Source: Victivallis vadensis
GTDB lineage: Bacteria; Verrucomicrobiota; Lentisphaeria; Victivallales; Victivallaceae
Assembly: GCF_003096415.1 (NCBI RefSeq)
Contig: NZ_QEKH01000007.1
Location: 62,001 to 126,000, forward strand
DNA length: 64,000 bases
Reading direction: 5' to 3'
Numbering within the stretch: position 1 is the first letter of the stretch; each line of letters begins with the position of its first letter. Shown piece by piece: positions 1 through 61,687 of this stretch. The notes beneath the pieces were generated by a model. The model was not told where the DNA came from. It did no database searches and saw nothing but the letters and a program-made list of their open reading frames with translations. Made by a program: the position numbers and the translations under genes.

Positions 1-898
1 GTGCCGAATACTTCAGATCCGGGAAAGGCGGAACGCCTTTCCCTCCGGGAGGGGGAGCCCTGATGGAGACAGGCATGGTTGTACAGGAGCGGCACACCGC
101 TCCGGTCGGCGCAAAGCCTGCTTTTTTGCCCGGAATGACGAGTACGGCGAAGCCGCACGGAGGAATGGAGGGAGGGGCCCACGAAAAGTACCCGCAGCTT
201 TTGGGCTTTGCCCAAAAGTCCCGAGGCCCGTGGCCGAAGGGAGGCAACTTTTTGGGGAGGGGGCACTCCCTGCGCCTGCTGCCGCCGGAGGTCACGCGCG
301 AAACCTCCAGATGCTAACCATCTGATTTGAAGTTACTCTGATGGAGGCTGAACTCTCCCTACCTTTTCATACAGGCAAGATTCAGTAAGGCTCGTATTCA
401 AAGATATGCTTGTCTGTGATATGACAATTGTATTGTTGCCTGACCTCGCCTTGCCTATATGGGAGTTTAGCTCTTATCAGCCTCCATCAGGGTATCTTTC
501 TATTACCCGGTCAGCATCTGGAGGTTTCGCGCGTGACCTCCGGCGGCAGCAGGCGCAGGGAGTGCCCCCTCCCCAAAAAGTTGCCTCCCTTCGGCCACGG
601 GCCTCGGGACTTTTGGGCAAAGCCCAAAAGCTGCGGGTACTTTTCGTGGGCCCCTCCCTTCATTCCTCCGTGCGGCTTCGCCGTACCCGTCATTCCGGGC
701 AAAAAAGCCGACGCGGTCGCCGACCGGAGCGGTGTGCCGCTCAGGTACTCGCCTGCCTGTCCACAGTAGAGCCTCCCCCCATCCGGAGGGAAAGGCGGTA
801 CGCCTTTTCCGGATCTCAAGTATTCGGCGCCGGCACCTTGCCGGTCGGGGTCAAGGGGCGAAGCGCCCTTGTCGCTGCGATCAGCAGCGAAATCCCCG
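1..898. repeat. Large palindromic intergenic element, copy 1 (left end cut by window)
   Basis: Positions 121-315 and 513-707 are inverted copies of each other, 195 bp long with only a couple of mismatches seen by eye. They enclose a centre at 316-512 that is also conserved in the copy at 60220-60905. Outside these arms lie further, less perfect inverted modules. The centre has its own inverted pair, CTGATGGAGGCTGA near 338 and TCAGCCTCCATCAG near 477. The right end, which reads GCGAAATCCCC, stops three bases before the stop codon of the next gene at 901. Each arm has a short inward-facing reading frame (63-317 plus, 511-819 minus) ending in the same peptide. I regard these as by-products of the repeat. 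No transposase is present. Confidence 0.85.
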
Positions 899-900
899 GG

Positions 901-2040
901 TCAGCGGCGGAACATGGGGGAATCCAGACCGAACATCCGCTGCTTCAGGTCCAGATAATACAGATAGTCGTTTTCGTCGACGTTCGGGGGGCAGCGGTGG
1001 TCGCAGAAGGGGATGTAGCCGCCGCGTTCGACATAGGGGACGAGCGACTCCATGTACGCTTTGATCGCTTCGCGGCCGGAGCCGAGCTGGATTTTGTCGA
1101 AACCGCCCATGATGCGCAGCTGCCCCCGGTAGCGGTCGAGCAGTTCGCCGGGATGGGCGCACCCCATCACTTCAAACGGGAACAGGCAGTTGATCCCTCC
1201 TTCGAGGAAATAGGGCAGGATCGGTCGCACGTCGCCGTCGCAGTCGGTGTACCAGAGGTCGATGCCGTACTGGTCGAGCTTCCGTCGGATGCGCTTGTAA
1301 CGCGGCATCACGATATCGCGGAAGAAATCGACGGTCACGATCGGGCCGTTCTTGAAACAGATATCCTCCCAGCCGGACGCGAAATCGAACCGGAAGTGCG
1401 GCAGCAGCTGGTCGAGGGCGTCCTCCACCAGCACGCAACAGGTTTCCACCATGTCCTCGACCATCTCCGGGTAGTCGAACATCGCGTATGCCAGCCCTTC
1501 AAAGGTGAGCATGTCGCGGATTTTGCCGATCATCGAACCGCAGTAGACGCCGAGCGGATAGTCGCGCGTTTCGGGATGGAGCGCCTGCAGCGCGGCCACG
1601 TCGATTTTCCGAGCGGGATCGTCGCGTCGGAACCGCTCCTCCCTGCACCGCTTCCAGTCCTCGGGCGTCACGATGCTGGCCTTGAGGTAGTGCGGGATGG
1701 TGTCGTGCCCGTCGAGCGGCACTTCCGCGAGCAGGCCGTCGCCGTTGATCAGGATTTTGGAACTCCCGCGCGTTTCGATCACCTTCGATTCAAAGGGGGG
1801 TGACATCCACGTGTTGCCGCCGATGCACTCGATCCGGTCGAAACCGAAGAAGCGGTCGGCCTCCGCGTTGCTGCGGATGCCGTTGTCGCGGAACATCTTC
1901 CACTCCGTGAAATTCTCATCCCAGTAACCGAACTCCATATTGAAGCAGCGGTCGACGCCCTGCGAGTTCATCTGGCGGCGGAAGCGTTCCCTTCCGGTCA
2001 TCGTTCCGGGCCACGGCTGACGGATCGGCTGAATTTTCAT
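901..2040 (-). CDS. Uroporphyrinogen decarboxylase-like family protein
   Basis: This 379-residue protein resembles the uroporphyrinogen decarboxylase (UROD)/cobamide methyltransferase superfamily, a TIM-barrel family. The motif WYTDCDGDVRP near residue 265, followed by LFPFE and a C-terminal GGYIPFCDHRCPP segment, matches the substrate-site and closing strands of that family. It is probably not the haem enzyme, because it stands apart from haem genes and the sequence is diverged. A methyltransferase-like role or an unknown role is likelier. The start at 2040 is chosen because GGAGAT lies just upstream; an in-frame start at 2097 lacks a good ribosome site. It lies on the same strand as araBDA, 133 bases downstream of araA. 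The stop codon almost touches the palindromic repeat. Confidence 0.75.
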   Translation of the reverse strand: MKIQPIRQPWPGTMTGRERFRRQMNSQGVDRCFNMEFGYWDENFTEWKMFRDNGIRSNAEADRFFGFDRIECIGGNTWMSPPFESKVIETRGSSKILINGDGLLAEVPLDGHDTIPHYLKASIVTPEDWKRCREERFRRDDPARKIDVAALQALHPETRDYPLGVYCGSMIGKIRDMLTFEGLAYAMFDYPEMVEDMVETCCVLVEDALDQLLPHFRFDFASGWEDICFKNGPIVTVDFFRDIVMPRYKRIRRKLDQYGIDLWYTDCDGDVRPILPYFLEGGINCLFPFEVMGCAHPGELLDRYRGQLRIMGGFDKIQLGSGREAIKAYMESLVPYVERGGYIPFCDHRCPPNVDENDYLYYLDLKQRMFGLDSPMFRR

Positions 2041-2173
2041 CTGATATCTCCTTGACTTTGCCGGTTGCACATCCTGCGCCTCAATCTTTTTCGTCACCGG
2101 CCGAACCCCGGCAATCAGAAATCAGCGTTCATCCGGTAAAAAAATAAATCCGCAATCCCCCCTCCGGTTCCGG

Positions 2174-9637: not shown

Positions 9638-10369
9638 ATGCAACACCCAAAGTACACCGGATACCGGAACGGCTCTGCCATGATGCGTCGGAATTTCACA
9701 TTGATCGAGCTGCTTGTCGTGATAGCTATTATCGCGATTCTGGCGGGGATGCTGCTGCCGGCGCTGAACCAGGCGCGGAGCAAGGCGCACGAGGCGAGCT
9801 GCGTGTCGCGGCTCAAGCAGATGGGAAGCGCGGTTTTGAGCTACGCGGACGGCAACGAAGGCTTCTTCCCGTTCAAGGGCTACCAGTACTACGAGGAATA
9901 CATGCTCGGGAAAACGCTGGGGGCAAGCCTCTCCTCCAGCGGCGATTACGTGGCGGTGAATCCGAAGTTCTACCTGTGCCCCGCCGACGGCGTGCCGATG
10001 GAGGCGCGCGCGGATTCGGAAAATAAGATCTGGACGAAGGTGGGCCTCCCGGATCGGTGGGCCTACGTCGCCCTCTCCTACGGCGCGAACGAACACGTGT
10101 TCGGTTCAAGCCTCACCGACGCCAACAAGCTGCCGCGCAAGGTCAACCGGATCCGGCGTCCCTCCGAAACGCTCGGCATCGCCGACAGCCGGAAGCGCGG
10201 CATCGACAACCGCCCCGACCTCGGTTACCGGCACAGCACCCGGGCGAACATCAACTTCGTCGACGGCCATGTGGCCGGGCGCAGCTTCGAGGAGCTGCCG
10301 GACATCAACGACGCGGACTTCGACCGCCGGATCACCTTCTGGTACGGCGGCATCAACCCGAATCCCTAA
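9638..10369 (+). CDS. Prepilin-like protein with H-X9-DG domain
   Basis: This 243-residue protein has the type IV pilin/pseudopilin leader [19 protein letters not shown] at residues 19-37, with the conserved Glu at position +5 of the mature form. It ends with [13 protein letters not shown], the H-X9-DG motif of prepilin-associated proteins in this phylum. It is expected to sit in the inner membrane through its N-terminal helix, with the rest outside the cytoplasm. The usual Gly before the cleavage site is replaced by Asn. The start at 9638 has GGGAAAGGA upstream. It lies between the regulator and three sugar-degrading enzymes, with no clear promoter of its own. Confidence 0.85.
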
Positions 10370-20065: not shown

Positions 20066-20773
20066 ATGGAAATTCCGGTAACAAAACTCATCCTCCCGTT
20101 CCATCGCCAAAAACACCGTTTCACCCTCATTGAGCTGCTCGTTGTCGTCGCGATTATCGCGATTCTGGCGAGTATGCTGCTGCCGACGCTGAACAAGGCG
20201 CGGGAGAAATCCATGAGCATCCAGTGCCTCAGCAACACGAAACAGTGCGCCCTGGGCATCAACTTGTATATGAGTGACTTCGATTCGTATTTCTTCAGCA
20301 GCCAGACCTACGCATGGGGGCTGAAACTGCGGGACGGCAATTACATCACCTGGGGGCCGCTGTTCTGTCCCAAAGGCAAGCAATCTCCGTCAATGATCAA
20401 AAACAACCACTTTTTCACCTATGCGGCGCGATATTTCATCACACCGAACGGAGGAAGCGCCTACAACACCAAGCAGGCGGTCAGGGACGGCAAGGCCTCG
20501 AACATGTTTCTGGTGCTGGACGGGGCGAAACTCGACGTCGGGATGCTCACTCCGCACTACCGGCTGCACGAGAACAACGTCAATTACGCCAACTTCCACC
20601 TCGCCCACGGAGCGACCGGGAACATCGCTTTTCTGGACGGCCACGCGGAGGCGGTGCAGGCGCAGGGGCGGGTGCGGGACCTGGTGATGCCCGCCCAGTC
20701 CGGCACCGGTTACTCCCGGATCATGGCGGTGTGGCGCAACCTCGGCGACCGGATCACGGTTCCGGCCCCGTAA
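20066..20773 (+). CDS. Prepilin-like protein with H-X9-DG domain
   Basis: This 235-residue protein has the leader [19 protein letters not shown] at residues 18-36 and a C-terminal [13 protein letters not shown] motif. The -1 residue is Arg instead of Gly. AAGGAG lies upstream of the start. It is placed between the secreted lyase and the sugar transporter in one operon, 39 bases after the lyase and 19 bases before the transporter. A pseudopilin-like role serving this locus (secretion, display or binding) is inferred only from position. Confidence 0.85.
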
Positions 20774-31682: not shown

Positions 31683-32429
31683 ATGAGAAACCGAGCCGCC
31701 AACTTCACATTGATTGAATTGCTGGTTGTAATAGCAATCATAGCGGTCCTCGCTTCGATGCTGCTGCCGGCCCTGAACAAGGCGCGCGACCGGGCGCGCA
31801 CCGCTTCGTGCCTGAGCAATTTAAAACAGATAGGCATCGCGACGGCTACTTACGCGGCCGACGACAAGGGAGCGATCATCTGGGTCCGGGATTCCACGCT
31901 GATGTACCGGAACAATGCCGGCGGCTGGCCGGCCGGGCTGGGTTTTCTGCATAAAATCGGCTACCTCGCCGCCCCCAAGGCATTCTACTGTCCGACCGAA
32001 CGGAAAAACCGCTATGAAAACCAGACGAAAATGTGGGAGAGCAAGCAGTCCAACAAGTACGACGACAACACCGGCAGCGACGGCATCACCTCCAACTACC
32101 TGCTTCCGAAAGAGGGTGCGCCCTACGATCCCCAGACCACGCAATCGGTCAACCTTGGTTATCCGGGAAGAACGATCTATATTTTCCTTAAGAAACAAAA
32201 GCCCGGCTACTCCTATATTGCGGACGGCTGTCTTCGCGAATACAACGCCAGAACCAATGAAGTCACCGGAGGCTGGCAGTGGGCGCATAACGGACACGCC
32301 GGAAACATTCTCTATCAGGACGGCCATGCGGAAACACTGACGATCTCCCAGGCTAAAATGATGAAAATGACCTCGACGAATTCCAACCACTGGGAAGCCC
32401 ATTATATGGGCTGCTACAATCGCAAGTAA
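31683..32429 (+). CDS. Prepilin-like protein with H-X-DG domain
   Basis: This 248-residue protein has the shortest leader of the set (MRNRAAN, then [18 protein letters not shown]). The C-terminal motif is [14 protein letters not shown], one residue longer than H-X9-DG. The -1 residue is Asn. AAGGAG precedes the start. It lies 14 bases after the regulator and 23 bases before a lipoprotein glycosidase. Confidence 0.87.
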
Positions 32430-35499: not shown

Positions 35500-36095
35500 G
35501 TGATGCGAAGCGCTTGCTCCTCCGACGCAAAGCGTCTTTGGAGTGCGGAGATTCATCTCTCTCCGTTTTCAAGTCACACGTGAGTTTTATGGTTGACTCG
35601 TCATTGCCGCAATAACAGGCATGGCGTCCGGAGGGACTGCTTTGCCTGAGCGCAAGAACAGGTAAGGTGCCCGGAGGGTAGTGAGCAAGGGACCTTCGAT
35701 TTGCGGATGGCTCCGGGGGACGTCGCGCACGTCCCCCGGCCCCCCTCGCCGGTGGCAGAGGCCGGTCCGGTTGCGAAGCACTTCCGCTCGCGGGCGCGGC
35801 TTCGCCGCTTACTTGCCGGGCTGCGCCCGTCAACCCCTTCAACGCCCGCGTTGCGGGCTACGCCAGGGGGGGCTTCGCTCACTGCGTTCGGCTTCGTCAC
35901 GATGTTCCTCGTTATTTTGCTGCTGCAAAATAATTCCCTCACATTCGCTCGCGGCGCTTGCCGCGCTTACTTGTGCAAGAAAAACGGTTATGGAGACCAA
36001 CCTTCACCTGCATGAGCCAGCCGCCGCGCGCTCCCGAAGGGTGTAGAGCGCGCACCCGGCAGCGCCACCTTGCCGCCATCTGCCTTGAAAAAAAG
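35500..36095. repeat. Dispersed intergenic repeat, family B copy 1
   Basis: The 699-base space between two genes holds a mosaic repeat with no convincing gene. Its segment from about 35773 to 35980 closely matches 55163-55370, and the 36040-36090 segment matches 55445-55490. It is rich in small hairpins, for example TTATTTTGC and GCAAAATAA near 35914-35935. It ends in a version of the GGCACCTTGCC motif also seen in the palindromic elements. Confidence 0.75.
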
Positions 36096-54699: not shown

Positions 54700-55495
54700 C
54701 ATGCCGTCCGATGTCAACCTTGGAGTGCGGAGCCCGAAGGGCTTGCTCCCGCTCCGCTTTCCAATCGCACATGACCATGTAGTTATACTTAAGTTTAATT
54801 CGCCTTTCCGTATCATTACCGGCCACAAACTGGGTGCCAGTCGTTTGCGGATGGCTCCGGAGGGCCTTTTCAAGGCCTGCCCGCCTGCGGCGTGCACGAT
54901 CGCCCGTCCGGACCTCCCCGCTCGCTTCGGGACTCCCGTTGACTTGCGAAGCACTCCCATTGATTTTTCCCCGACGCGAAGCGTCTTTGGAGTGCGGAGA
55001 TTCATCTCCGCTTTCCAGTCGCATGTGATCATATAATTATACTTAAGTTTAATTCGCCTTTCCGTATCGTTACCAGTCACAAACTAGTTGTTATATCTTA
55101 TGCGGATGGTTCCGGAGGGCCAATCGCCCTCCGGACCTCCCCGCTTGCCTCGGAACTTCCGTTGACTTGCGAAGCACTTCCATTCGCGGGCGCGGCTTTG
55201 CCGCTTACTTGTCGGGCTACGCCCGCCAACTCCTCACCGTTCGCTGCACTCACTGCGCCGGAGGGGCTTCGCTCTCTACGTTCGGCTTCGTCACTATCGT
55301 TCCTCGTTATTTTGCTACCGCAAAATAATTCCCTCACATTCGTTCGCGGCGCTGACCGCGCTTATTGTGCACCGCGTAAAAGGTTGCATAACCTGTCGTG
55401 TGCCACAAAAACGGCGATTTAGCCTTCGCACGCCCCCCGAAGGGGCATTGGCGGGCGCACCCGGCAGCGGCACCTTGCCGCCCTGTTCTTTAATA
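54700..55495. repeat. Dispersed intergenic repeat, family B copy 2, with internal duplication
   Basis: The 914-base space between two genes contains no convincing gene. A unit starting near 54719 is repeated near 54979, about 255 bases on; both hold TTATACTTAAGTTTAATTCG. The part from 55163 to 55370 matches 35773-35980, and the end (55445-55490) matches 36040-36090. It includes hairpins such as TTATTTTGC and GCAAAATAA (near 55307-55328) and the CGGCACCTTGCCG motif near 55464. Confidence 0.78.
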
Positions 55496-56649: not shown

Positions 56650-57429
56650 ATGAAACAGTATTCGTTACGGTATCCGCATATTCATCAACTCTCACGGCTC
56701 CCGATATTTGCCGCAGCCCAGGCGAGATTCCGCAAAAACAGGATGAAAATATGCAGTTTCACTCTTATTGAGCTGCTCGTGGTGATAGCCATCATCGCGA
56801 TACTGGCGAGCATGCTGCTGCCGGCGCTGAACCAGGCGCGGGAGCGGGCGAATGCGATCAAATGCACCAGCAACCTCAAGCAGACCGCGCTGGCGCTGCT
56901 GAACTACAGCGGCGACTACGACGACTACATCATCTTTTCCAACAAACAGGACTACGGCATCTGGGGCTGGCAGCTGTACGAATGCGGCTATGTGCGCGGC
57001 ACGTTGTGGCTGGTTCCCTCGCTGAGCTGCCCGTCGCAGCCCCCGACTTTGAAAGACACGCTGGACCGTACCCCCGGCGTCACCGACGTGCAGTTTGAAA
57101 CCACCTACCAGTACGCGCTGAATATGCTGATGTCGCCGCGGCTGTGGGAGGGGGGCAAGCAATTGAACAAGCTCAGCCAGCTGCGTGAGCCGGGCAAAAC
57201 CGCCAATGTGCTGGAAACGGAGGGGCAGTCGTACACCTACCCGCACATGTCCGAAATGGATCCGGCATGGAAGCTGGCACGCCGCCACAACGGCGGCAGC
57301 TCCTCGAATGTCGCCTTCTTCGACGGGCATGTGTCCAATTACATCCGGATTCCCTTCGATCCGACGTGGGACAAAAGCCGTTTCTGGAACGGCACCGTCG
57401 CCGCCTCCAACATCACCATTTTCTTCTGA
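56650..57429 (+). CDS. Prepilin-like protein with H-X-DG domain
   Basis: This 259-residue protein has [19 protein letters not shown] after a 36-residue leader. An internal Met (MKICS) five residues before the motif would give a short leader, but the ribosome site clearly favours the ATG at 56650. The C-terminal motif is [15 protein letters not shown], two residues longer than H-X9-DG. Ser stands at -1. It is followed after 10 bases by a GH71-like gene. Confidence 0.87.
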
Positions 57430-59462: not shown

Positions 59463-60215
59463 ATGTCCAATCAGGAATTTCCGGAAAAAGCCGTATCCTA
59501 CCACGGCTATCGCCTGCACCGTTTCACCTTTGACGGCTGCGAATGCTTCATCGTCGAACCGCACCGGCCGCGCCCCGGCCGCGAATGGTTGTGGAAAGCC
59601 GAATTTTTCGAAGCGTTCCCCGCCTTTGAGCTCGCGATGCTGGAACGGGGCTTTTACCTCGCTTTCATCACCGTCGGCAACACTTTCGGCTGCCCCGATG
59701 CGCTGGAGCATTGGGATGCGTTTTACCGCGAACTCACCACCCGTTACGGCTTCGCCCGCCGGGCTATCCTGTTCGGCCTGAGCCGCGGCGGTCTCTATAT
59801 CTACAACTGGGCCGCGAAAAATCCCGGTAAAGTCGCCTGTCTCTACGCCGACAATCCGGTCTGCGATTTCAAAAGCTGGCCGGGCGGCAAAGGCGTCGGG
59901 CCCGGCAGCCCGGAGGATTGGCAAAAGCTCCTGCGCGACTATCACTTCTCCACCGAAGCCGAAGCCCTCTCCTGGCCCGGCAACCCGGTCGACAACCTCA
60001 AGCCGCTCGCCGAAGCCGGGATTCCGGTGATCCACGCCGCCGCAACCGACGACGAAGTCGTAGCGGTCAGCGAAAACACCGACATCCTGGAACCGCGCTA
60101 CCGCGCCCTCGGCGGCGTCATCGAAGTAATCCGCCACCCCGGCAAACATCATCCCCACGGCCTTCAAGACCCCACCCCGATTATCAACTTCATCCTGAAG
60201 CACAAGCTCTCGTGA
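59463..60215 (+). CDS. Alpha/beta hydrolase
   Basis: This 250-residue cytoplasmic protein has the nucleophile elbow GLSRGG (Ser near residue 107), an acidic residue in AATDDEVV near 195 and a His in HHPHGL near 230, completing a catalytic triad. YADNPVCDFKSWPGG is a typical strand-7 region of sugar-related esterases of this phylum. The substrate is unknown; an acetyl or other ester on sugars is possible. GGAGC precedes the start. Its stop lies four bases from the large palindrome. Confidence 0.78.
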   Translation: MSNQEFPEKAVSYHGYRLHRFTFDGCECFIVEPHRPRPGREWLWKAEFFEAFPAFELAMLERGFYLAFITVGNTFGCPDALEHWDAFYRELTTRYGFARRAILFGLSRGGLYIYNWAAKNPGKVACLYADNPVCDFKSWPGGKGVGPGSPEDWQKLLRDYHFSTEAEALSWPGNPVDNLKPLAEAGIPVIHAAATDDEVVAVSENTDILEPRYRALGGVIEVIRHPGKHHPHGLQDPTPIINFILKHKLS

Positions 60216-60219
60216 TACG

Positions 60220-60905
60220 GGGATTTCGCTCCTATTGGAGCGACCAAGGCGCTTCGCCCTTGGAACCCGACCGGCAAGGTGCCGGTGCCGAATACTTCAG
60301 ATCCGGGAAAGGGGAGCCCTGATGGAGACAGGCAGGGTTGTACAGGAGCGGCACACCGCTCCGGTCGGCGCAAAGCCCGCTTTTTTGCGGGCTTTAGGCA
60401 CTCCCTGCGCCTGCTGCCGCCGGAGGTCACGCTCGGAACTTCCAGATACTGACCATCTGATGTGAAGTTACTCTCATGGAGGCTGAACTCTCCCCTGCCT
60501 TTTCATACAGGCAAGGTTCAGTAAGGCTCGTACTCAAAGATATGCTTACCTGTGATATGACAATTGCATTGTTGCCTGACCTCGCTTTGCGTATATCGGC
60601 AGATAAACTCTTATCAGCCTCCATCAGGGTATCTTTCTATTACCCAGTCAGCATCTGGCCGTTCCGCGCGTGACCTCCGGCGGCAGCAGGTGCAGGGAGT
60701 GCCTAAAGCCCGCAAAAAAGCGGGCTTTGTGCCGACCGGAGCGGTGTGCCGCTCCTGTACAACCCTGCCTGTCTCCAGCAGAGTCTCCCACCCGGAGGGA
60801 AAGGCGGAACGCCTTTCCCGGATCTGCAGTATTCGGCACCGGCACCTTGCCGGTCGGGTTCCAAGGGCGAAGCGCCTTGGTCGCTCCGGGAGGAGCGAAA
60901 TCCCC
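60220..60905. repeat. Large palindromic intergenic element, copy 2 (complete)
   Basis: This 686-base element begins GGGGATTTCGC and ends GCGAAATCCCC. Its arms (about 60220-60455 and 60648-60905) are inverted copies, and the centre (about 60456-60647) closely matches 316-512. It fills almost exactly the space between the stop of the hydrolase (60215) and the stop of the AraC gene (60905). Both arms lack the module at about 130-265 that both arms of copy 1 contain. The CCGGCA-CCT-TGCCGG hairpin occurs near both ends. No protein gene is apparent. Confidence 0.87.
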
Positions 60906-61687
60906 TAGCTGTTCGGCTGCTGGCGGCGGCGATATTCGCCCGGCGGCATGCCGGAGGCGCGGCGGAACGCCCGGTAGAAGCTTTCCAGATTCTCGAAACC
61001 GCACTCCTCCGCGATCAGCTTGATATTGTCGTCGCTGCCGGCGAGACGGGTGCGGGCCAGACGCAGCCGGTAGTTCAGCAGATACTGGTGGGGGCTGCTT
61101 TTGAGATGCTTGGAAAAGAGTGCATACAAATACGGTTCGCTGACTCCGGCTTTCGCGGCCAGCTGCGCCACTGAAAAATCCAGCCGGGAGGCGTCCCGCA
61201 GCAATGCCAATGCCCTCGCCAGCGGCTTCGGAAGCCCGGCCTGCCGCGACTGTCGGTTGCCGATATAGGCTTCCCAGAACACCCGGCGGTGCAGATATTC
61301 GCACAGGAAATTCCGGTCGATCGTTTCATCGTGAAACAGCCGGAACGCATCCTCGACGAACCGGTCCAGCTCCGGTTCCGCCGACCAGAAGGAGACGCGC
61401 GGCACGGTCCGCCTTTTTTCCGGCACCCGGAAGCGGATCGAAATGCAGCGGTACGGGTCTTCCGGCGGCGTCCGGAATACGGTGTATTCGCCCTCGATAT
61501 GCCAGAAAATCGTACCGCGCTCGTATTCGCGCACGCCCTCTTCCGATTCGAAGAACACCCGTCCGCCGGTGATGATTTCCAGCAGTTCCTGCCCCTCGTC
61601 GGTCATCACCGGCCGGATCTCCCGGCCCGGGGGGGCGAGGAAAATGCCGACGCCGACCAGCGCCGTCGGCCGATTGATTTCGGACAT
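60905..61687 (-). CDS. AraC-family regulator with cupin sensor domain
   Basis: This 260-residue protein has an N-terminal cupin-like domain (FLAPPGREIRPVMTDEGQELLEI) and a C-terminal AraC domain (FSVAQLAAKAGVSEPYLYALFSKHL and IKLIAEECGFENLESFYRAFRRASG). It is divergent from the 2-hydroxyacid dehydrogenase gene and may control it. GGAAGG precedes the start at 61687. Its stop codon touches the end of the palindromic element. Confidence 0.87.
   Translation of the reverse strand: MSEINRPTALVGVGIFLAPPGREIRPVMTDEGQELLEIITGGRVFFESEEGVREYERGTIFWHIEGEYTVFRTPPEDPYRCISIRFRVPEKRRTVPRVSFWSAEPELDRFVEDAFRLFHDETIDRNFLCEYLHRRVFWEAYIGNRQSRQAGLPKPLARALALLRDASRLDFSVAQLAAKAGVSEPYLYALFSKHLKSSPHQYLLNYRLRLARTRLAGSDDNIKLIAEECGFENLESFYRAFRRASGMPPGEYRRRQQPNS

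What the first reader, a model, noticed from the sequence alone, without database searches (positions are those of the whole stretch)
1..898. The two arms of each palindrome change together
In copy 1 both arms contain an extra block (about 130-265 on the left and its mirror on the right), with about two mismatches over 195 bases. In copy 2 both arms lack this block. Independent insertion or deletion in both arms is unlikely. Some process must copy one arm onto the other, such as gene conversion within a cruciform or template-switching replication.
Basis: seen in the sequence. Interest (0 to 1): 0.75.

Follow-up and report, generated by a model that had tools for sequence, protein, structure and literature searches.

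The report
Mosaic palindromes with partly converted arms
This bacterium carries 37 copies of a ~700-base mirror-image repeat, mostly between the ends of facing genes; the two arms of one copy do sometimes overwrite each other over short stretches, but arms are shuffled among all copies far more than they are kept matched.

Summary
Copy 1 carries a ~134-bp block in both arms (128-261 and 567-700; 2 mismatches) and copy 2 lacks it in both. The inference that arms of one copy change together as a rule is not right. I recovered 37 copies (35 complete, two halves at contig starts). The block sits in only 4 of 70 arms: both arms of copy 1, the right arm only of one copy, the left arm only of another. 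Lacking it is the ancestral state. Arms within a copy are barely more alike (distance 0.150) than arms of different copies (0.172); for 29 of 31 copies the nearest arm lies in another copy. Yet a significant minority of short tracts is shared privately by the two arms of one copy (longest identical run 67 vs 50 bases, never reached by permutation; private k-mers 11 of 89 vs 1.3 expected); copy 1 is the clearest case. Arm-to-arm copying therefore exists, as short tracts on top of free shuffling. What changes in concert is the small hairpin: stem sides agree in 63/65, 68/69 and 64/69 arms. Each arm is a string of hairpins with a T6 tract of fixed polarity; 24 of 35 copies lie between convergent genes. 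It is BIME-like, without a detectable RAYT-type transposase.

The parts
1..897 (+). Copy 1 of the mosaic palindromic element (its first 66 bases lie left of the window, contig C7 61935-62000)
128..261 (+). Extra block in the left arm of copy 1; replaces the 3' half of hairpin I; module of another dispersed repeat (C37, C9 x3, C23)
567..700 (-). Mirror of the block in the right arm, 2 mismatches
122..127 (+). T6 tract at the outer edge of the block; the hairpin half outside it differs between the two arms of copy 1 (CAAAGCCTGC vs ACCGCGTCGGC), so the shared tract ends here
701..706 (-). Mirror T6 tract in the right arm
262..566 (+). Core of copy 1: inner stem (~90 bp per side) around ~125 bp non-palindromic centre; the inner part keeps fixed left and right types in all copies
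60219..60905 (+). Copy 2 of the element, lying between convergent genes that both end at its edges
60397..60703 (+). Core of copy 2
60381..60386 (+). T6 tract of hairpin I in the left arm of copy 2 (mirror at 60714-60719)
901..2097 (-). Gene whose stop codon abuts copy 1 on the right (no Pfam match)
59463..60215 (+). Gene ending 3 bp before copy 2 (no Pfam match)
60905..61687 (-). AraC-type regulator gene converging on copy 2 from the right

Best explanation
The element is a multi-copy, BIME-like intergenic mosaic: a ~705-bp imperfect palindrome made of two mirrored strings of small hairpins around a 305-bp core, placed at the 3' ends of (mostly convergent) genes, where each arm offers incoming transcripts a GC hairpin and a U6 tract. 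Its sequence evolves by short-tract non-reciprocal copying (template switching at quasi-palindromes and/or gene conversion) between any two arms of the family, left or right, same copy or another copy. Same-copy copying is one visible part of this and explains copy 1: a foreign repeat module entered one arm of some copy, reached three copies, and in copy 1 a ~190-bp tract from the T6 tract into the core stem was made the same in both arms. Shown: 37 copies, mosaic arms, weak association beyond neighbouring modules, left and right arms forming one pool, excess private sharing within copies, hairpin loops present in both orientations, convergent-gene location. Inferred: the enzymatic route, the direction of copying, and the termination role.
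For: Pooling of arms: outer-arm distance L-L 0.173, R-R 0.166, L-R between copies 0.172, L-R within copy 0.150 (permutation p 0.0014). No co-inheritance of whole copies: left-left and right-right distances uncorrelated, r = 0.013, p = 0.39. Linkage between module alleles in one arm is mostly lost beyond the next module or two. Same-copy copying: 5 of 16 doubleton variants shared by the two arms of one copy vs 0.25 expected; private 14-mer events 11 of 89 vs 1.3 expected, in 8 copies; longest identical run 67 vs 50, and 64.6 vs 50.8 without copy 1, 0 of 20,000 permutations. Loop inversion, the second footprint of template switching (PMC8604942): hairpin E loops in both orientations (GTTCC/GGAAC, GTTTC/GAAAC, GTACC/GGTAC, GTGCC/GGCAC); block hairpin GGGC-TTT-GCCC in copy 1 vs GGGC-AAA-GCCC in the other two copies. 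Local hairpins are the coherent unit: stem sides agree in 63/65 (B), 68/69 (E), 64/69 (I; 4 of the 5 exceptions are the block arms), against left-right agreement of 23/30, 21/34, 11/34. Position: 24 of 35 between convergent genes, stop codons commonly 2-30 bp from the ends; T6 polarity the same in all 69 readable arms, with GC stems directly before it for the alleles folded.
Against: The within-copy excess is modest for whole arms and absent for modules F, H and I. Reads are not available, so assembly could have mirrored or hybridised some tracts. The generic terminator scan did not flag the T6 hairpin in copy 2. Gene directions were inferred from codon-position GC, not annotation. No active machinery was identified.
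Confidence: 0.62

Rival explanations
1. Assembly artefact: a short-read assembler walked the same arm twice or mixed arms of different copies, creating both identical arms and mosaics.
For: Fragmented assembly (87 contigs); contigs C51 and C64 start inside the core of an element and their arms share a 132-base identical run, the kind of place where an assembler breaks.
Against: Mosaicism is seen at 20-50 bp scale, well inside a read; copies lie in unique gene contexts inside long contigs; copy 1 arms still differ at 2 sites in the block and have different hairpin halves just outside it. A break at identical arms would bias against seeing homogenised copies, so the measured excess may be too low.
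Confidence: 0.15
2. Selection for pairing of the two arms (one giant hairpin as RNA or extruded cruciform) keeps them alike by compensatory changes, with no copying.
For: A very stable giant hairpin is predicted; outermost modules A and B and the core-stem site J match within copies more than chance.
Against: Module I agrees between arms in only 11 of 34 copies and F less than chance, while local stems agree almost always; a 134-bp block with private variants cannot arise by single compensatory steps.
Confidence: 0.1
3. Copy 1 is a recombinant of a copy with the block on the left (L034-like) and one with it on the right (L033-like), so no arm-to-arm copying happened there.
For: The hairpin halves outside the block in copy 1 are the L034 type on the left and the L033 type on the right.
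Against: The two copy-1 blocks differ at 2 sites and share several variants absent from L033 and L034 (loop orientation, CCCACGA, junction G, GCGAAACC); each matches the other copies at only 96%. Recombination followed by copying remains possible.
Confidence: 0.13

Closest known systems
BIMEs / REP pairs (bacterial interspersed mosaic elements; PMC3733652)
   Same: Intergenic, palindromic, modular, many copies, mostly between convergent or same-direction genes, proposed roles in termination and mRNA stability; evolution by gene conversion proposed long ago (Higgins 1988, cited in PMC3733652).
   Different: 705 bp near-palindrome rather than 20-40 bp units; mirrored strings of about nine hairpin modules around a fixed core; no Y1 transposase found in the genome; GTAG/CGTC tags were not examined.
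REPINs with RAYT transposases (PMC3116915)
   Same: Two inverted palindromic units around a variable centre, with stem-compensated variation.
   Different: No PF01797 gene in this assembly although the control search works; much larger.
Quasi-palindrome template switching (PMC8604942, PMC8794818)
   Same: Arm homogenisation, loop (spacer) inversion and multi-base compensatory stem change are the footprints seen here.
   Different: Described mostly for short inverted repeats; here tracts reach ~100-190 bp and donors appear to include other copies.
Arm-to-arm gene conversion in long inverted repeats (Y-chromosome palindromes and chloroplast inverted repeats, cited in PMC8604942)
   Same: Two arms share private variants.
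   Different: There arms stay nearly identical (own knowledge); here they stay ~15% different and exchange freely with other copies.

Membership tests
BIME-like mosaic intergenic palindromic repeats | Multi-copy and intergenic, at gene 3' ends | tested here: met
   37 copies; 24 of 35 between convergent genes, 9 mixed, 2 divergent by codon-position GC
BIME-like mosaic intergenic palindromic repeats | Mosaic of short palindromic modules | tested here: met
REP/REPIN with RAYT | Y1 HUH transposase (PF01797) in the genome | tested here: not met
   0 matches, control genomes ring; genome 99.5% complete, 87 contigs
REP/REPIN with RAYT | GTAG or CGTC tag at the unit | not tested
   not examined
Quasi-palindrome template switching | Arm homogenisation with private variants | tested here: met
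Quasi-palindrome template switching | Spacer (loop) inversion | tested here: met
Arm-to-arm gene conversion in long inverted repeats | Arms of one copy much more alike than arms of different copies along their whole length | tested here: not met
   0.150 vs 0.172; nearest arm in another copy for 29 of 31
Insertion sequence derivative (MITE) | Terminal inverted repeats of an IS in the same genome | tested here: inconclusive
   Eleven copies have a CCGTGTGCAAGTTT-like end on one or both sides, also present near contig ends typical of a collapsed IS; the IS itself was not recovered; target-site duplications were not tested
Described Rfam RNA families | Match at gathering score | tested here: not met
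   0 matches in the window

The most novel reading that the evidence does not exclude
A bacterial intragenomic population of arms that behaves as if sexual: about 70 mirrored arms exchange modules of 20-50 bp to near linkage equilibrium across the chromosome, left with right and copy with copy, through hairpin-driven template switching, while each arm keeps a U6 hairpin for termination at convergent genes.
Probability: 0.35. Interest if true: 0.7.

Novelty: new variant of a known kind. Interest (0 to 1): 0.5.

Why it matters
Thirty-seven large copies with many alleles per module give a natural record, in one genome, of how often a palindrome arm is copied onto its partner, onto another copy, or flipped in a hairpin loop. 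Template switching has mostly been measured at short inverted repeats; here tract lengths and donor choice could be measured directly in a few strains. It also shows how matched arms in one pair of copies can mislead: the family shows exchange everywhere and only modest within-copy matching.

Tried and rejected
Empty sites in congeners: the gene pair at copy 2 is not together in the eight congeners searched, so no empty site was obtained. Viral contigs: three hits to a 20-mer, only ~44-bp GC-rich similarity. Phage records: no match. My first pattern for the IS-like end was mistyped and found nothing, then repeated correctly. The IS at the contig ends could not be recovered. A simple ORF-length rule for gene direction failed because antisense frames are open, so codon-position GC was used. 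Subfamily history as cause of within-copy likeness was rejected by the Mantel test.

Full report
Observation. Copy 1 is a large imperfect palindrome with arms 120-351 and 477-708 (95% complementary), and copy 2 is a second one with inner arms 60319-60486 and 60614-60781 (89%). Copy 1 has the block 128-261 and its mirror 567-700, with two mismatches; copy 2 has neither. Copy 1 begins 66 bases before the window.

The family. The genome (5.2 Mb, 87 contigs) holds 37 copies: 35 complete and two halves at contig starts. They are ~705 bp long with ends GGGATTTCGC...GCGAAATCCC. The core is ~305 bp in most copies, ~403 in six and 503 in one, the larger sizes fitting extra units of ~98 bp. The core was not found in 40 related genomes including eight congeners. 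One congener, G005, has a ~52-bp module (hairpins B and C) in many copies inside other strings of hairpins.

The block is rare and one-sided elsewhere. It occurs in 4 of 70 arms: both arms of copy 1, the right arm of L033 and the left arm of L034. Nearly all other arms have a complete hairpin I, whose 3' half the block replaces, so lacking the block is ancestral. The block is a module of another dispersed repeat at C37, C9 (three tandem units) and C23. Copy 2's arms differ from each other by loss of hairpin E on the left.

Outer-arm distances: within copy 0.150, between copies left-right 0.172, left-left 0.173, right-right 0.166; within-copy excess p = 0.0014 by permutation; in 29 of 31 copies the nearest arm is in another copy. 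The excess is in the outer modules A to E and in the core stem, not in F, H or I. Left-left and right-right distances are uncorrelated (r = 0.013, p = 0.39), so there are no inherited subfamilies to explain it. Module alleles in one arm associate mainly with neighbours.

Arm-to-arm copying does occur. Five of 16 doubleton variants are shared by the two arms of one copy against 0.25 expected. Private 14-mers: 11 of 89 events same-copy against 1.3 expected, in eight copies. Longest identical run: 67 within vs 50 between, 64.6 vs 50.8 without copy 1, never reached in 20,000 permutations. In copy 1 the tract runs from the T6 tract, outside which the two arms carry different hairpin halves, into the core stem, and contains several variants absent from the other two block-bearing copies. 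A crossover between an L034-like left and an L033-like right could have brought the blocks together, but does not explain those shared variants.

What changes in concert is the small hairpin. The two sides of a local stem agree in 63/65 (B), 68/69 (E) and 64/69 (I) arms, four of the five I exceptions being the block arms; left and right arms agree in 23/30, 21/34 and 11/34 copies. Hairpin loops occur in both orientations. Arm homogenisation and spacer inversion are the two described footprints of template switching between inverted-repeat arms (PMC8604942), and multi-base compensatory stem change has been attributed to it as well (PMC8794818). Gene conversion by homologous recombination is not excluded; the route is inferred.

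Function. By codon-position GC, 24 of 35 copies lie between convergent genes, 9 have one gene pointing toward and one away, and 2 are divergent; stop codons often lie 2-30 bp from the ends. All 69 readable arms have the T6 tract in the same polarity, so that transcripts entering from either side meet a U6 tract, and none has A6; example sequences of the four hairpin-I alleles fold into a GC hairpin directly before it, two strong and two weaker. The generic scan did not flag it in copy 2. Bidirectional termination is therefore plausible and untested. REP elements also lie mainly between convergent and same-direction genes (PMC3733652). No Y1 transposase gene was found, so it is not a standard REP/RAYT system.

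Ends and short forms. Eleven copies have a CCGTGTGCAAGTTT-like end on one or both sides, five of them on both (L034, L038, L060, L061, L065), and two further copies (L046, L047) sit in another flanking inverted repeat. Related short palindromes containing only the outer modules A and B occur next to such ends, so the element may grow or shrink at its centre; this is not shown.

Limits. The assembly is fragmented and no reads are available. Contigs C51 and C64 start inside elements and share a 132-base identical run; if they are the two halves of one copy, copies with identical arms break the assembly and within-copy homogenisation is underestimated. The organism was not identified.

Noticed in passing
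L142, L143, L144 (C7:25501-26000, C7:139501-140100, C27:32501-33200): Short palindromes made only of outer modules A and B; L142 and L143 lie between IS-like CCGTGTGCAAGTTT ends on both sides, L144 has such an end on one side only.
   Followed up: partly
L046, L047 flanks: The element sits exactly in the middle of another inverted repeat (25 of 25 bases mirrored in L047).
   Followed up: partly
Core of L060-L065 and L052: Core enlarged from 305 to about 403 or 503 bp, apparently by extra ~98-bp units.
   Followed up: no
window 9684-9781, 20109-20206, 31693-31790, 56747-56844 and mirrored copies: Repeated N-terminal methylation (prepilin-like) signal genes; the one tested (56650-57429) matches N_methyl and DUF1559 in Pfam.
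   Followed up: partly
window 35771-35969 and 55167-55364; 54752-55184: Other dispersed hairpin-string repeats in the same window.
   Followed up: no
contig ends C35, C38, C13, C49, C60, C30: Near-identical ~185-bp ends, probably a collapsed insertion sequence whose end resembles the flanks of some element copies.
   Followed up: partly
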